Of a DNA stretch of 64,000 nucleotides, positions 21,939-63,370 are shown one piece after another. Both the position numbers and the translations under genes were made by a program. The notes under the pieces were generated by a model. That model ran no database searches, had not been told where the DNA came from, and saw only the letters and a list, made by a program, of their open reading frames with translations. The stretch's first letter is position 1, and each line of letters starts with the position of its first letter. The DNA is from Anas platyrhynchos. Its lineage: Eukaryota > Chordata > Aves > Anseriformes > Anatidae. The stretch lies in assembly GCF_047663525.1 (NCBI RefSeq), contig NC_092616.1, positions 1,649,501 to 1,713,500 of the forward strand. Reading direction: 5' to 3'.

Positions 21939-21944
21939 TATACA

Positions 21945-22211
21945 TGTGGGTAGTTAGGGTCTGGCGGCCGGAAGATGTCGCGATGTACGGAAAGGTGGAG
22001 CCCCTCCCTTGATGGACAGTAGCGTGTGGCCTGTGATGTAAGCAAGCGGAAGTGACGCTATGGGCCTCGGGTATATAAGCCCATGTGACTCGACAAGAAA
22101 CGCCATTTGCCATCCACCACATTGGTGTCTGTGAGCTGATGGACCGAGCGGCCTGGGGTTGGTCGCCGTGCCGTTCCTGAACCAGGTCGCCACTGCCCCC
22201 TGAAGGCAACA
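21945..22211 (+). repeat. 5' LTR of the short provirus
   Basis: 267 bp, TG to CA. A TATA box lies at 22072-22079 and the alpharetroviral-like R block follows about 30 bases later. The usual AATAAA is absent; AAGAAA occurs just before the R block and may serve instead. Confidence 0.92.
22072..22079 (+). promoter_or_regulatory. TATA box of the 5' LTR
   Basis: TATATAAG sits about 140 bases before the LTR end. The identical site lies in the 3' LTR at 23932-23939. Confidence 0.7.
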
Positions 22212-22213
22212 AG

Positions 22214-22231
22214 TGGTGCCGAAACCCGGGA
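22214..22231 (+). promoter_or_regulatory. Primer binding site, tRNA-Phe
   Basis: TGGTGCCGAAACCCGGGA starts two bases after the 5' LTR. Its reverse complement is the 3' end of vertebrate tRNA-Phe (TTTCGGCA plus CCA). All 18 bases match the tRNA as I know it. Confidence 0.85.
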
Positions 22232-22311
22232 AAACTCCTGATTTGGGTGAACGGCGGCCGGAGCGGCGGGACCAGCCCGGCGGGGAGGAAGCTCCCGGAC
22301 CAACAAGGAAG

Positions 22312-22764
22312 ATGGAAACCCTTGTGAAGGTCGTATCAAAGTTGTGGAAGCTGTGGGGTGGCTCGGCTGAGGAAGCCAGGGGTGCCGGTGGGGAACCAGA
22401 GCCTGAGGAAATCTGGGAGAGACCACGGCCATGTGCGCCCCAGTACGGTGCTGAACTAGAAGACGAAGAATTGGGTGAAGAAGCCTCCGGCGGGAACGGG
22501 GATGAAGCGTTAGGTTTTACTAACAAGTGGAAATACGAAAAAGAGAACGGTTGCGGGGACGACCGGGGAGGAGGTAGAAGCGTGAGAGAGGGGCAGAGAG
22601 CCGATCGGAACGGCCATCCGAAAACACGCTCCTGTGGCGCAAACGCCTCGCTGAGATGGCGGCGGGGCGAGCCACGAGGCAGGGAGCGGCCCCCCCGCAG
22701 GGGTGGGGGGCGGGGCCGGAACTCGATGGGAGGGTACCGGAACTCGGAGGTGAGCAGTCAGTAA
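22312..22764 (+). pseudogene. gag: gag-derived frame, first part (matrix region)
   Basis: The frame is open from the primer site onward. The ATG at 22312 is the likelier start because it follows a 100-base leader and opens with a short amphipathic stretch rich in Lys, Trp and Leu. The rest is acidic and then strongly basic (Arg/Gly-rich), with no matrix motif I can place. It ends at a TAA (22762-22764). The sequence stays open in the same frame immediately after this stop, so the two parts look like one gag frame split by a single stop. Proteins of this type assemble the retroviral particle at the membrane. Confidence 0.6.
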
Positions 22765-23424
22765 AGCTCTGACTCCGGATCAGATACCGATTCAAATTCG
22801 GAGGAGGAAATGGGGACAGATAGCCAAAATATCCCCATCCGAAATAAAGCTGCACCGCGAGGCAGAGAAATTCCTCTCACAGATTGGAGGAAAATTAAGA
22901 TTGCGTGCACCATCTTAGCTCTATCGGCCGTGCTAGCGTTCCTGGTCTGGGTGACAGACGGGGGGCAGAGGGTTCACTCACCAACAAACCCTAAGGATGT
23001 ACAAGCGATTGTTAAAGCCATTGTGGATAAAGGGCTTCATTCTGCAATGGTCTCCACCCTCATAGATGGTGTTGTCAGGGGAGACAACATGCTCCCGTTT
23101 GATATAACACAAACTTGTAGACTGATCTTTGACGGGGGTGGGATGATCATTTTTAAACGAGAATGGGGGGACAACTGTATGAGACAACTGGCCCAAGTAA
23201 CTGGGACGGATCACACACTGTATGGCTCCAGCCTGCAGCGGCTAATGGGTATGGACCCAACAGTGATCACCCCCCAGGTGCAAGTCCAGGGCCTGAGGGC
23301 CCACAAAGGTATGGCAACTCGTACGTCCAGAGAAGCTCCAAACAGCCGACGCCCCAACTTCAGAACAAAACTAATGAAAACTGAGTTTCTGTTCACAGGA
23401 ATGGATCATCGGGCACCCCCGTAA
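22765..23424 (+). pseudogene. gag: gag-derived frame, second part (capsid N-terminal region)
   Basis: The frame continues from the preceding stop through a Ser/Asp/Glu-rich linker to the next ATG (22810), which gives a 204-residue product. Residues 55-150 from that ATG resemble the capsid N-terminal domain of alpha/beta-type Gag: an Asn-Pro-Lys start, a Lys-Gly-Leu turn, a Leu-Pro-Phe-Asp motif and a Trp-containing helix. Residues 31-49 form an unusual uncharged hydrophobic run. The capsid C-terminal domain and the zinc-knuckle nucleocapsid are missing, and the tail is basic. The element therefore encodes at most an incomplete Gag. Confidence 0.68.
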
Positions 23425-23545
23425 TCTGTATACCCCAGCGACATGAGAAGACAATAAGTCAGCAGGCATCCTGTCTAAGCCTGAGAGTTCCACACTGGCA
23501 GAATCCAGACACCAGCGAAGCGGCCTCCGTGGGTGGGGGGCTGCA

Positions 23546-23662
23546 ATGCGTTTGTGTGATCTTATCTTTGGACCTTGTATACTAAATATGCTTGTGTTGT
23601 TTGTTAAAAGTTGGTTAGAGAAAGTTAACATTATGTTGGTAGAACACCAACAACTACTTTAA
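23546..23662 (+). pseudogene. env: Short env transmembrane-tail-like remnant
   Basis: A reading frame ending in TAA (23660-23662) contains a hydrophobic stretch with a Gly-Pro-Cys-Ile motif followed by a charged Trp/Lys/Glu tail. The motif and spacing resemble the end of the transmembrane Env piece in the minus-strand element at 44339-44530. Upstream Env sequence is absent. It is too short to be sure, and no start codon supports separate expression. Confidence 0.42.
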
Positions 23663-23790
23663 GAGTGTATTTACTCAGGGTTACCAGTTACCTCTTAGTT
23701 TTCTCCTGGTTATTGTGCCCTATGTTTTTTAGTTAAGTTATGATGTCTACATCTTAAGATTGTTATATGTTAGCTAATTTGGGTGTGCAT

Positions 23791-23804
23791 AGGGAGGGGG
23801 GAAA
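23791..23804 (+). promoter_or_regulatory. Polypurine tract
   Basis: Fourteen purines (AGGGAGGGGGGAAA) lie directly before the TG of the 3' LTR, where plus-strand DNA synthesis is primed in retroviruses. Confidence 0.85.
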
Positions 23805-24071
23805 TGTGGGTAGTTAGGGTCTGGCGGCCGGAAGATGTCGCGATGTACGGAAAGGTGGAGCCCCTCCCTTGATGGACAGTAGCGTGTGGCCTGTGATGTA
23901 AGCAAGCGGAAGTGACGCTATGGGCCTCGGGTATATAAGCCCATGTGACTCGACAAGAAACGCCATTTGCCATCCACCACATTGGTGTCTGTGAGCTGAT
24001 GGACCGAGCGGCCTGGGGTTGGTCGCCGTGCCGTTCCTGAACCAGGTCGCCACTGCCCCCTGAAGGCAACA
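23805..24071 (+). repeat. 3' LTR of the short provirus
   Basis: 267 bp with no difference from the 5' LTR seen by eye. It is followed by the second copy of TATACA. Confidence 0.92.
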
Positions 24072-24077
24072 TATACA

Positions 24078-59437: not shown

Positions 59438-60388
59438 TCATGGATTTCCCACCTGCTTAGTCATCCCCAGGAGCTTGCACAAAGTACGTTTCAAGGCTTC
59501 CTTCATCTGCTCGTTCCTTAGACTGAATATGAACGGGTTTAAAAGAGGTGTGACGATGCTGGAGAGAACAGAGAGGATTTTGTTGAGGTGCACAGAGTTC
59601 ATCTGGGGCGGCCTGAGGTAGATGAAGATAGAGATGCCAAAGCCCAGGGAAACCACGACGAAATGTGAAGCACAAGTGGCAGATGCTTTCTGCCTGCCCT
59701 GGTTGGACGGAATCCAGAGTATGGTTGAAATGATCCGGACGTAGGATGCTGCAGTCAGTGCCAGGGAACCGAGGAGCAGGACCGAAGACACCACCAAATC
59801 AGTCAACTCAACAACCCAAACGTCCGTACAGGCGAGGCGCAGGAGAGGCGTGCTGTCACAGAAGTAGTGCTCGATGACATTGGGACCACAGTAGGGCAGC
59901 CCGGCTCTAAGCACCGCTGATGGCAGGATCACGAGCAAGCCACCCACCCACACGGACAGGACAAGCTGGTTACACACCCTTCCCGTCATGATGGTGGGAT
60001 ACCTCAGCGGGTGGCATATTGCCACGTACCGGTCATAGGACATGATGGCAAAGAGGAGGAACTCTGCTGCAACAAGGGAGAAGTAAAAGTAGAGCTGGCT
60101 GAAGCAGCCCGCAAAGGAGATGGTTTTCTTCTCTGACAGAACATTTGCCAGCATTTTTGGCACCAGAGTGGAGGTTGTGGAGATCTCGATGAAGGAAAAG
60201 TTGCTGAGGAAGTAGTACATGGGAGAATGGAGATGGCAGTCTACATATACGAGTACGATGATAAGAGCATTTGCCAGGACAGTGACTAAATAAACAAACA
60301 GGAACACCACGAAGAAGACAATCTCTACCTCAAGGCTGTTAGGAAACCCCACCAGGATGAACTCTGTCACAGTGGTGGCATTCCCCAT
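59438..60388 (-). CDS. Olfactory receptor, class II, OR6-like, intact
   Basis: An uninterrupted 316-residue seven-transmembrane G-protein-coupled receptor that would bind odorants in olfactory cilia. The start is the ATG at 60388 because Met-Gly-Asn-Ala-Thr gives the usual short N-terminus with a glycosylation site. An upstream in-frame ATG at 60484 would add 32 charged residues atypical of the family. Hallmarks: LHSPMYYF (53-60), Cys95 and Cys177 for the extracellular disulfide, MSYDRYVAICHPLRY (116-130), KASATCASH (234-242) and PLLNPFIFSLRN (281-292). The length is normal (about 310-320) and no stops or frameshifts are seen, so it is probably functional. It has one coding exon, as usual. 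No other receptor lies in the window. Subfamily is judged by overall look only. Confidence 0.95.
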   Translation of the reverse strand: MGNATTVTEFILVGFPNSLEVEIVFFVVFLFVYLVTVLANALIIVLVYVDCHLHSPMYYFLSNFSFIEISTTSTLVPKMLANVLSEKKTISFAGCFSQLYFYFSLVAAEFLLFAIMSYDRYVAICHPLRYPTIMTGRVCNQLVLSVWVGGLLVILPSAVLRAGLPYCGPNVIEHYFCDSTPLLRLACTDVWVVELTDLVVSSVLLLGSLALTAASYVRIISTILWIPSNQGRQKASATCASHFVVVSLGFGISIFIYLRPPQMNSVHLNKILSVLSSIVTPLLNPFIFSLRNEQMKEALKRTLCKLLGMTKQVGNP

Positions 60389-61937
60389 TGTTCCCCACAC
60401 GTTTGCTGTCAGCTCTTCGAAATTTAACTCATTCCTTTTAAATAAAGATCTTTTCTTAGCAGTCACATCTCCGTTCCTCCCCATCTAGCAGTCACCAATA
60501 CTTGTTACAGCTTTTCACTTCAAAAGGATGGAGCAGACGAGTCCTTGCTGCCAAGCTGCTTCAGTGTCTCTGTTACCATCGGCCAGAATTGCCATCAAAC
60601 ATCTACATATGACTAGTTATTGTCACCCTGCGTTTTCTACAGCTGGATTTTCAGTTATGCATGCTCAAAGTGACCAAACATTGCATTTGCAAGGAAAATA
60701 CCCCTGCTTAGACATTGGTTGCTTCATGGTTGCCTTCATCATGAACATAGTTTGGGTGCCTTCCTGAAAGCTGTTGTGCCTGAATTCCTGATGAGAGGTT
60801 CAATTCTGGAAACCAAGAGGCAAAATGCAGAGACAGACTGAGAGAGAGAGGAAAAGATGATCCCGCGTTCCTCGTTTCTGTTGTACCAGCAGCAGAGCTC
60901 ACTCTTCAGCTGAGTTACTTATTGCACAGCACCCAGCAGGAGAAACACGGAGGTGCAGGGTGATGGGGCTTGGAGTATTAGAACAAAAAGGGGCTTACAC
61001 TCTCATAGCCAATATAACCGTGGCTCTCCTTCAGGTCTGACAAGCTGTGCTCAATCCCATGAGAATGGAGCAGTGTTTTCCATGGTCTGCATAAGTGCTG
61101 GCTGCAGATTCCTGTGGGAATTAGATTAGTCATGGCAGGAAAACCTGAACAATTAATGCTTGAAACCTCTCAGGGAAGGAAGCCCCAAAAGTAATGTTCA
61201 GTAATGGGGCAGAAGTGATTATATTATTATTTTTCTCTGTTTTCACAAAGAGGGCACATTTCACAATGGGACAAGAATACTCAATAGACTGTCTGAGAAA
61301 TTCCAAAAGAAATGGTAAAATGATTGCCTCCTTCACAAACATTTGCACCTCAAAGTCCAGAGATTTCCAACTCAGAAGACTGAGGGAAGCAAATCTTAAC
61401 GAATGTGTACAAGAGTAGGGCACTGGTCGATTTGAAATTGATTTTGTCCTGCATCCACCAAGTCTTGATGTAGCATCACATGAAGTATGAGATCTTCATC
61501 TTCAGGACATCTTCATCTGCATGAGATCTTCGTCTTCATGAGTATCTCATGAAGTATGAGGCAACAACGGCATTTTTCAGTGAATTGGATTAGGGATGAC
61601 CCCGCAAGGCTCCCAGCCCTCAGAGATACAACAGCAATGGGCAGATTCCAATCATTTCAATCACTTCACAGGGTGAATGTCTTTTTTTTGTTGTTTTGTT
61701 TTGTTTTGTTTGTTTGTTTGTTTGTTTTTTAAGCTAGCACAAAAGTGCACACTCACAGGGAATTCCAGGGTCCAGTTCATCTGCCTGGTTTAGGACAGAG
61801 CTAGCCAAGGACTAGGAATGTTAATGCCTTTCTCATCTTAAATCCCATTAACCCTGAAAAACTGTTCAGGCGGATATCCTTCAGGGCTCGTGGTGCTGTC
61901 TTGAGCAGTCCTAGTTCACTCACACTTTCTATTTGTG
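60389..61937. other. Upstream region of the olfactory receptor, no other gene seen
   Basis: Likely holds 5' untranslated exons and promoter of the receptor, but none can be fixed. A short duplicated block lies at 61479-61560 and a TTTG-rich repeat at 61681-61732. Confidence 0.45.
61681..61732 (+). repeat. TTTG/TTTTG simple repeat
   Basis: T run followed by TTTTG and TTTG units. Confidence 0.88.
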
Positions 61938-63370
61938 TGTAGTGGTTTAACACTGGTAGGTAGTAAGCACTACCATGCCGTTCTCTTACTCACTGTCCTC
62001 AAAATGGGGAGAAAATACCAAAAAAAGAAAAATAAAAAATAAAGACTCATGGTTTGAGATGAAGACAGGGAGATTGCTCGTACTCATGGTACCATAACAG
62101 GCAAAACAGGCTCACCTTATGGGAGATTAATGTAATTTGGGGAGATTAATGTAATTTATTGCCTATTGATAACAGACTGGGGCAGTGATAACCAAAGGCA
62201 AAACAAAACCACCTTCCTCCCACCTTCCTCTTCTACCTTCTCCTCCCAAGCAACGCAGAGGAACGGGGAATGGTGTCAGTCCATACTGCTTCGTTGGTGA
62301 TGCTCCTTCATCCTCACTCTCTTCCCTCACTCCAGCATGGGGTCTCTCCCAGAGATGTCCTTCCCGAACTGATCCCACAGGCTGCGTGCAGTTCTTCCTG
62401 TGGGGCACTGTTCTTGGGGAACGGATGTCTCCAGCATGCATCCTCTCAGTTAGGTTATCACAGAAAAACTGTGTTGGAGCTATGGCCATGTACTCGGGCT
62501 AGTGCATGGCCATTACTGCTGTCCCTGCACTGCTGTACTGAACAGGCTGGAACTCCAGCATCAATTTGAGGGACTGTGGCCTGTGAACGAATCTACATGG
62601 GGGCATGGACACCCCAACGGGTCTGCATGTGTGGATATGTCCAGAGTGCAGAAGGTACAACCCTGAAGGGCTCTGAGTCTCTGAGTCTGAGTCGGTGAGT
62701 CTTTGAGTTTACCATGAGTCTACTATGAGTCTATGCGTCTACTAACGATGAGTCTACATGTACAAATCTACAAGTCTATGAGTCTTTGAGTCTGAGTCTG
62801 AGTCTTTGAATCTGTGTCTGTGAGTCTTTGAGTCTATGAATCTTTGAGCCTTTGAGTCTGAGTCTGTGAGTCTTTGAGTCTTCAAGTCTATGAATCTCTG
62901 AGCCTTTGAGTCTGTGAGTCTTTGTCTTTGAGTCTGTGAATCTGAGTCTATGAGTCTTCGAGTCTATGAATCTTTCAGTCTGAGTCTTTGTCTTTGAGTC
63001 TTTGAGTCTGTGAGTCTTTGAGTCTTTGGGTCTATGAATCTTTGAGTCTGTGAGTCTTTGAGCCTGAGTCTGTGAATCTGTGAGTCTTTGAGTCTTTGAG
63101 TCTATGAAACTTTGAGTCTTTGAGTCTGTGAGTCTACGAGTCTGAATAAGGCCACAGAGGAGCAGGTGGGGTGGCATGAAGTGACTGTGACCATGGATAA
63201 GTGCACACTGCAGCAAGTACACCACTGAAGGAACCGTGCCTCATGGATAAGGCCACACCAGAGCAGGAACACCCCAAAGGGATGGAGGCCCAGAGCAGGG
63301 GCAAAGGGAGGCGTTCATTGCACTGTTAAAACCTACAGCCCTGTGGATTCTCTACCTCATCCAACACAAC
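61938..63370 (+). mobile_element. ERVL-like LTR with an internal tandem array
   Basis: It starts TGTAGTGGTTTAACACTGG, with the same plan as the LTR at 63814. It continues through the CAGCATGGGGTCTCTCCCAG and GGGGCACTGTTC blocks typical of the long avian ERVL-type LTR. After a tandem array (62674-63144), CATGGATAAGGCCACACCAG and AACACCCCAAAGGGA continue the same kind of sequence. The right end is not defined. A 19-bp direct duplication lies at 62121-62157. Confidence 0.55.
62674..63144 (+). repeat. GAGTCT tandem array (about 470 bases)
   Basis: Irregular units of 8 bases such as GAGTCTTT and GAGTCTGT, with GAGTCTAT and longer 10-12 base variants, repeated about 55 times. The array is nearly free of C except in TCT and leaves the minus strand open for 149 codons, which is a by-product of the period. 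Confidence 0.92.

What the first reader, a model, noticed from the sequence alone, without database searches (positions are those of the whole stretch)
21939..24077. Very young non-autonomous provirus with identical LTRs
Both 267-bp LTRs are identical by eye, the 6-bp duplication TATACA is intact, and primer site and polypurine tract are perfect, yet pol is absent. Such an element must rely on proteins from another retrovirus and may still be moving or be polymorphic in the population.
Basis: partly seen in the sequence, partly recalled or inferred. Interest (0 to 1): 0.8.

Follow-up and report, generated by a model that had tools for sequence, protein, structure and literature searches.

The report
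Pol-less duck retrovirus element, many copies
This is one recently inserted copy of a short, defective retrovirus-derived element in a duck-like bird; dozens of sister insertions sit in the same genome, and it most likely spread by borrowing the enzymes of a longer relative of which only a few near-complete copies were found.

Summary
In detail: two identical 267-bp LTRs, a 6-bp TATACA duplication, an 18-nt primer site, a polypurine tract and no pol. The host genome could be searched. I dated 38 two-LTR copies (37 separate insertions); 37 of the 38 share this deleted structure. LTR substitutions average 1.95 of 267 and 12 of 38 have none, so identical LTRs mean under about 3 million years, not "very young". 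A longer env-less gag-pro-pol relative shares LTR, primer site, leader and 3' end and is itself recent (2 of 267). Near-complete copies of its RNase H-integrase segment lie at about six places. The short form arose by stepwise deletions; intermediates survive. Three separate insertions share one frameshift, so a broken copy still spread, and the truncated gag frame evolves near neutrality (omega 0.85, 0.63-1.15). Best reading: passenger RNA mobilised in trans, as held for MusD/ETn or cattle ERVK D-type elements. Polymorphism could not be tested. New member of a known kind; moderate interest.

The parts
21939..21944 (.). 5' copy of the 6-bp target-site duplication TATACA
21945..22211 (+). 5' LTR, 267 bp, TG...CA
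   Evidence: 100% identical to the 3' LTR
22072..22078 (+). TATA-like box TATATAA in the 5' LTR (so also in the identical 3' LTR); no AATAAA in the LTR
   Evidence: motif scan only
22214..22231 (+). primer-binding site, 18 nt, complementary to the 3' end of a tRNA (tRNA-Phe by recall)
   Evidence: a 22-nt tRNA-end pattern containing 15 of these 18 bases occurs at two places in the genome, control 0; that these are tRNA-Phe genes was not tested
22232..22311 (+). untranslated leader; PBS plus leader 96% identical in the pol-bearing relative on C33
22312..22761 (+). first part of the truncated gag frame (matrix/p10-like by position), starting METLVKVV
   Evidence: no Pfam match; homologous N-terminus in P0001
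22762..22764 (+). in-frame stop codon private to this copy among 36 compared
22765..23421 (+). rest of the same frame; stop at 23422-23424 (370 codons in uninterrupted sister copies)
22975..23301 (+). Gag_p24 capsid N-terminal domain (PF00607)
   Evidence: E 1.2e-20; best solved relative alpharetroviral capsid 1p7n, E 1e-4
23338..23359 (+). 22-bp remnant of reverse-transcriptase sequence; deletion-1 junction at 23337/23338, 106-bp deletion junction at about 23359/23360
23360..23384 (+). about 24 bp from the very end of pol
   Evidence: alignment to the C33 relative; ends approximate
23385..23790 (+). 3' untranslated region; 361 bp of the 3' part 93% identical in the C33 relative
23791..23804 (+). 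polypurine tract AGGGAGGGGGGAAA
23805..24071 (+). 3' LTR, 267 bp
24072..24077 (.). 3' copy of the target-site duplication TATACA

Best explanation
The window holds one copy of a multi-copy, non-autonomous class II endogenous retrovirus of a waterfowl. Its RNA, made from the LTR promoter, keeps the cis-acting sequences (R/U5, primer site, leader, 5' gag, PPT) of a longer env-less gag-pro-pol relative, is packaged, reverse transcribed and integrated by proteins from that relative, and so moves as a passenger. The family arose by stepwise internal deletions of such a relative: capsid joined to RT, RT joined to the end of pol, then a 106-bp loss. Its truncated Gag frame is a leftover, not a needed product. 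Shown: structure, many independent insertions, a pol-bearing relative with matching ends, intermediates, a broken-ORF lineage at three separate sites, near-neutral evolution. Inferred: transcription, packaging and trans-mobilisation, and that the C33-type relative is the helper.
For: Copies: of 27 loci behind the 40 best LTR hits, 20 are full-length (2.12-2.15 kb) and 7 are solo LTRs; of 20 further loci, 18 have two LTRs. Perfect duplications at a fixed offset in 17 of 20 + 14 of 18; 37 separate insertions of 38 after one segmental pair is merged. Relative: C33:792537-798255, 5,719 bp, LTR 96.6% to the window LTR, leader 96%, 3'UTR 93%, same PBS 18-mer and 14-nt PPT, GAACAC duplication, own LTRs 2 of 267 apart; Gag p24, p24_C, zinc knuckles, protease, RT, thumb, RNase H and integrase. 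Broken lineage: L013, L016 and L026 share a 1-nt insertion in the ORF, clade support 100/98, three different target duplications. Neutrality: N=128, S=64, omega 0.85 (0.63-1.15), against dN/dS 0.115 between two long gags, capsid part only. Intermediates L059, L062, L063 keep the RT sliver, as does Oxyura protein P0003. The first 0.9 kb of the C33 relative is closest to the short copies and its capsid is not, as expected if the two RNAs were co-packaged and recombined.
Against: No direct sight of mobilisation, RNA or particles. The C33 relative has one in-frame stop in pol, so a competent helper was not seen. The frame is open in 29 of 38 copies (370 codons; two more are open with other lengths), which could hint at use. 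The shared frameshift is one base in a run of A, so recurrence is conceivable, though the three copies form one clade. The recombination breakpoint was picked after looking at the same data; in capsid the sites do not clearly group the C33 copy with other long gags (tied in 2 of 8 comparisons), and recombination between two long lineages would look alike.
Confidence: 0.85

Rival explanations
1. The truncated Gag (matrix to capsid N-terminal domain) is made and matters, either helping its own RNA in cis or interfering with relatives, so the frame is kept by selection.
For: 29 of 38 copies keep exactly 370 open codons and two more are open with other lengths; a 370-aa Anas acuta protein with the same ends stands for a cluster of 14 member sequences.
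Against: Replacement to silent ratio near neutral, omega 0.85 (0.63-1.15); three separate insertions share one frameshift and two copies end at the same codon 345; the window copy itself has a stop. Weak constraint (omega down to 0.63) is not excluded.
Confidence: 0.08
2. The helper is not the C33-type relative but another class II ERV or an exogenous retrovirus that accepts this RNA.
For: RNase H-integrase relatives with at least 1,100 of 1,131 bp are at about six places only, and the one read has a stop in pol.
Against: C33 shares LTR, PBS, leader, PPT and 3'UTR, and its own LTRs differ at 2 of 267 sites, so it too moved in the same period.
Confidence: 0.15
3. The insertion is older and its LTRs were made identical by gene conversion.
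For: The copy differs from its nearest sampled relative by 1.36% and carries private interior changes; its one private LTR change is in both LTRs.
Against: The same pattern is expected if the source copy already carried those changes; zero or few LTR differences are common across the family (12 of 38 without substitution).
Confidence: 0.1
4. The family spread by segmental duplication, not retrotransposition.
For: One insertion is amplified in arrays on C8, C10 and C6, the one copy read from each sharing flanks, and L035/L056 are segmental copies.
Against: 31 of 38 dated copies have perfect 6-bp duplications at a fixed offset, each different except in L035/L056; 13 flank pairs share 15-mers but only L035/L056 share nearly all of both flanks.
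Confidence: 0.02

Closest known systems
Cattle ERVK[2-1-LTR] C-type / D-type pair (PMC10924933; abstract, passages and section 20 read)
   Same: Defective copies outnumber pol-bearing ones (85% to 15% there), keep LTRs and part of gag, and are assumed to be mobilised in trans; C and D types recombine.
   Different: Cattle D-type is about 6.8 kb with a swapped-in middle segment and was seen moving in pedigrees; here 2.1 kb, middle deleted, bird host, movement inferred only.
MusD/ETn and IAP I-delta-1 (mouse), KoRVA/RecKoRV (koala) (named in PMC10924933 section 20)
   Different: ETn and RecKoRV carry a swapped-in middle segment; here the middle is simply deleted, stepwise. No sequence comparison made.
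TR-GAG retrotransposons of plants (PMC8704663, passages read)
   Same: Two LTRs and a single gag-derived frame; lack most of the proteins needed to transpose.
   Different: The TR-GAG described there encodes a full-length GAG; here capsid C-terminal domain and zinc knuckles are missing and the frame evolves near neutrality.
corCorLTRK1b 2.25-kb ERVK insertion near crow NDP (PMC7341801, passages read)
   Same: Similar size, ERVK class, young (about 530,000 years), bird.
   Different: Segregation in populations and an effect on a gene are reported there; not tested here; no sequence comparison made.
ART-CH of chicken (name seen in PMC7325683 passages; structure recalled)
   Same: Short alpharetrovirus-related avian retrotransposon with partial gag (recall).
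   Different: Different host; relation not tested, no ART-CH sequence was held.

Membership tests
Non-autonomous (trans-mobilised) ERV | Two LTRs with TG...CA ends and a target-site duplication | tested here: met
Non-autonomous (trans-mobilised) ERV | Primer site and polypurine tract retained | tested here: met
Non-autonomous (trans-mobilised) ERV | No pol enzymes encoded | tested here: met
Non-autonomous (trans-mobilised) ERV | Same defective structure at many independent insertion sites | tested here: met
   37 of 38 dated copies have this structure (L059 is an intermediate); 37 separate insertions in all (L035/L056 are one)
Non-autonomous (trans-mobilised) ERV | Pol-bearing partner with matching cis sequences in the genome | tested here: met
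   competence of the partner not shown
Non-autonomous (trans-mobilised) ERV | Mobilisation in trans demonstrated | not testable with these tools
   needs pedigrees or RNA data
Class II (alpha/beta-like) ERV | Gag p24 related to alpha/betaretroviral capsids | tested here: met
   E 1.2e-20; best hit 1p7n E 1e-4
Class II (alpha/beta-like) ERV | 6-bp target duplication | tested here: met
   (31 of 38 perfect at a fixed offset)
Class II (alpha/beta-like) ERV | RT places in class II by phylogeny | not tested
   RT found in the relative, no tree of RTs made
TR-GAG | Complete gag frame | tested here: not met
   capsid C-terminal domain and zinc knuckles absent here, present in the C33 relative; stop in this copy
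Young or polymorphic insertion | LTR differences below neutral expectation for old insertions | tested here: inconclusive
   0 of 267; 95% upper bound 2.9 My
Young or polymorphic insertion | Empty site in other individuals or sister species | not testable with these tools
   no second bird genome held
ART-CH | Sequence relation to ART-CH | not tested
   no ART-CH sequence held

The most novel reading that the evidence does not exclude
The short form is a parasite of a parasite: it captured the machinery of its env-less progenitor so well that it outnumbers near-complete pol-bearing copies many-fold and has pushed that progenitor to a handful of places, so this genome records such a takeover, with the deletion steps and possible recombinants preserved.
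Probability: 0.25. Interest if true: 0.65.

Novelty: new member of a known kind. Interest (0 to 1): 0.4.

Why it matters
It gives a clean bird case of a two-component ERV: many short passengers, few near-complete pol-bearing relatives, intermediates of the deletion path, and a measured loss of protein constraint. The idea that defective copies drive ERV families to extinction (proposed for cattle, PMC10924933) could be tested by comparing short to long ratios and ages across ducks. The LTR dating also shows how little identical short LTRs say about age.

Tried and rejected
Rejected: origin of the deletions by splicing (no GT-AG at the junctions; the 106-bp loss lies between short ACT matches). 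Rejected: strong selection as the reason for the open frame (weak constraint is not excluded). Rejected as evidence of age: private interior changes, because the source copy may already have carried them. Considered and corrected: loci L038 and L039, first taken for long relatives, keep long gag but only about 158 bp of the 1,131-bp RNase H-integrase segment, so they are pol-deleted too; L038 is one of the two gags behind the dN/dS of 0.115. Corrected on recount: the last deletion is 106 bp (246 against 140 bases; the 104 of my notes ignored a 2-base overlap of the two matches). Led nowhere: viral contig scans with ORF2 protein, P0002 and an LTR 20-mer, Rfam and tRNA scans of the window, first literature searches. 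The junction-specific copy count did not complete. The tRNA name for the PBS stays a recall: the longer tRNA pattern did not complete.

Full report
What is there. The coordinates given are exact: LTRs 21945-22211 and 23805-24071, 267 bp, no difference; TATACA on both sides; an 18-nt primer site two bases after the 5' LTR; a polypurine tract directly before the 3' LTR. The interior is 1,593 bp. It holds one truncated gag frame from the start at 22312, interrupted once by a stop at 22762-22764 and continuing in the same frame to 23421. The second part has a Gag p24 N-terminal domain (E 1.2e-20) whose best solved relative is an alpharetroviral capsid (1p7n, E 1e-4). No pol domain was found.

Host. 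The window has repeats that look like CR1 (the name by recall) and an olfactory receptor gene whose best named relatives are Chauna torquata and Anseranas semipalmata at 85-86%, with an unnamed record at 98%. The closest protein to the truncated gag is a 370-aa Anas acuta protein, 92% identical over 95% of ORF2. I take the host to be a waterfowl of the duck family; no tool named it.

Copies. The genome holding the window could be searched (G000, 1.26 Gb). An LTR search gave 498 candidates, of which the 40 best were scored, all at least 98% identical. The 27 loci behind them are 20 full-length copies and 7 solo LTRs. A protein search with a longer Gag (P0002) scored 108 of 752 candidates: 11 matches reach into or through the capsid C-terminal part, the other 97 stop at residue 246-253 as the window element does; this count includes tandem arrays. 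Twenty further loci were fetched; 18 have two LTRs and two (L062, L063) only a matched 3' LTR. Perfect 6-bp duplications at a fixed offset: 17 of 20, 14 of 18, and 6 of 7 solo LTRs. One pair (L035, L056) is a segmental copy, leaving 37 insertions.

Age. LTR mismatches over 38 copies sum to 74, mean 1.95 of 267, zero in 12 (two of these 12 have gaps). With 1.91e-9 per site per year, the rate used for duck LTR elements in PMC10989122 (passages read), one mismatch is 0.98 My, the mean is 1.9 My, and zero mismatches has a 95% upper bound of 2.9 My. The window copy is at the young end but not unusual. Its nearest sampled relative differs by 1.36%; ten sites were private among the first 20 copies, two of them the same LTR position in both LTRs, and nine stayed private among 36. 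So its source lineage had probably diverged before insertion, or the LTRs were converted.

Origin. Three loci (L059, L062, L063) keep 106 bp more, a sliver of reverse transcriptase joined in frame to the capsid; the Oxyura jamaicensis protein P0003 and the unnamed P0153 show the same kind of join. P0003 comes from a gene model, so its join could in principle be a predicted intron, but it agrees with the genomic junction here. Against the long relative on C33 the path is: capsid joined to RT, RT joined to the last bases of pol, then the 106-bp loss, which changed the C-terminal frame. Junctions show no GT-AG.

Relative. C33:792537-798255 is a 5,719-bp element with LTRs 96.6% identical to the window LTR, the same PBS 18-mer and PPT, its own GAACAC duplication, and LTRs that differ from each other at 2 of 267 sites. 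It encodes gag with p24, p24_C and zinc knuckles, protease, RT with thumb, RNase H and integrase; only about 420 bp lie between the end of pol and the 3' LTR, too little for env; its pol frame has one in-frame stop. A search with its RNase H-integrase segment scored all 29 candidates: 11 hits cover at least 1,100 of 1,131 bp, six of them in one tandem array, so about six places; the other 18 are partial, down to 103 bp. The weakest hit listed is 88% identical, and the tool skips very common words, so more diverged pol-bearing lineages may be missed. With that limit, the sampled 37 short or intermediate insertions alone outnumber near-complete pol-bearing places about six to one.

How it works. 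Three copies with three different duplications (L013, L016, L026) share one frameshift and form a clade with support 100/98: a copy with a broken frame was, most simply, copied onward (the insertion lies in a run of A; only 6 of 17 inner branches of that tree are well supported, this one among them). Two more copies (L046, L061) end at the same codon 345; whether that is one event was not tested. Among 29 copies with exactly 370 open codons, 128 replacement and 64 silent changes give omega 0.85 (0.63-1.15), no different from neutral (p 0.31), far from the 0.115 between the capsid parts of two long gags, L040 and L038; short against long gives 0.30-0.36. The first 15 copies gave 0.78 for singletons and 0.91 for shared changes. 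Excluding CpG sites gives 1.27 for singletons and 0.70 for shared changes, neither significant. These 29 were chosen for being open, which removes stops from the sample. The frame is therefore best seen as a leftover, and mobilisation as work of proteins in trans. The long copy L040 is closest to the short copies in its first 0.9 kb but not in capsid (for example sites 74:23:17 against 17:28:36 for short=L040: short=other: L040=other; Fisher p 1.5e-6 to 2.4e-4 over 8 comparisons), but I chose the breakpoint after seeing the profile, and in capsid L040 groups with the other long gag only weakly, tied in 2 of 8 comparisons. This suggests, and does not prove, co-packaging.

Known kinds. Passenger ERVs with a pol-bearing partner are known: the cattle ERVK[2-1-LTR] C/D pair, MusD/ETn, IAP I-delta-1, KoRVA/RecKoRV (PMC10924933: abstract, passages, section 20). 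Plant TR-GAGs are similar but encode GAG (PMC8704663, passages). A 2.25-kb ERVK insertion segregates in crows (PMC7341801, passages). A duck ERV survey reports 1,607-2,031 copies averaging 7 kb (PMC11067759, abstract and first part of section 9) and does not, in what I read, describe this family. My literature searches on duck or bird non-autonomous ERVs listed no paper whose title or abstract start names such a duck family; that is not proof that none exists.

Verdict. Observation confirmed; interpretation partly supported; a new member of a known kind, interesting mainly for the lopsided short-to-long ratio and the preserved deletion path.

Noticed in passing
G000:C8:39.84-39.94 Mb, C10:25.09-25.37 Mb, C6:41.6 Mb (L065-L067): Tandem arrays near the ends of three contigs carry this element (steps about 13.1 kb on C8, mostly 11.4-13 kb on C10, 13.1-13.5 kb on C6). 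One copy read from each shares flanks at about 99%, so one insertion was amplified.
   Followed up: partly
G000:C32:3.12-3.17 Mb and C35:63.44-63.80 Mb: Further clustered copies, on C35 in both orientations.
   Followed up: no
G000:C2:106,607,766-106,626,579: Six tandem copies of the RNase H-integrase segment, steps of 3,369-4,201 bp.
   Followed up: no
G000:C39:2.51-3.19 Mb: Eight hits to only 103 bp near the end of pol, spread over 0.7 Mb.
   Followed up: no
L036 and L043: The 5' LTR match of two long-gag loci is split by about 860 bp of other sequence.
   Followed up: no
window 21945-22211: The LTR has a TATA-like box but no AATAAA; how these transcripts are polyadenylated is unclear.
   Followed up: no
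window 59441-60484, - strand: Open olfactory receptor frame of the OR6M1 type.
   Followed up: partly
window 62773-63143: 8-bp tandem repeat AGTCTTTG, about 49 copies.
   Followed up: no
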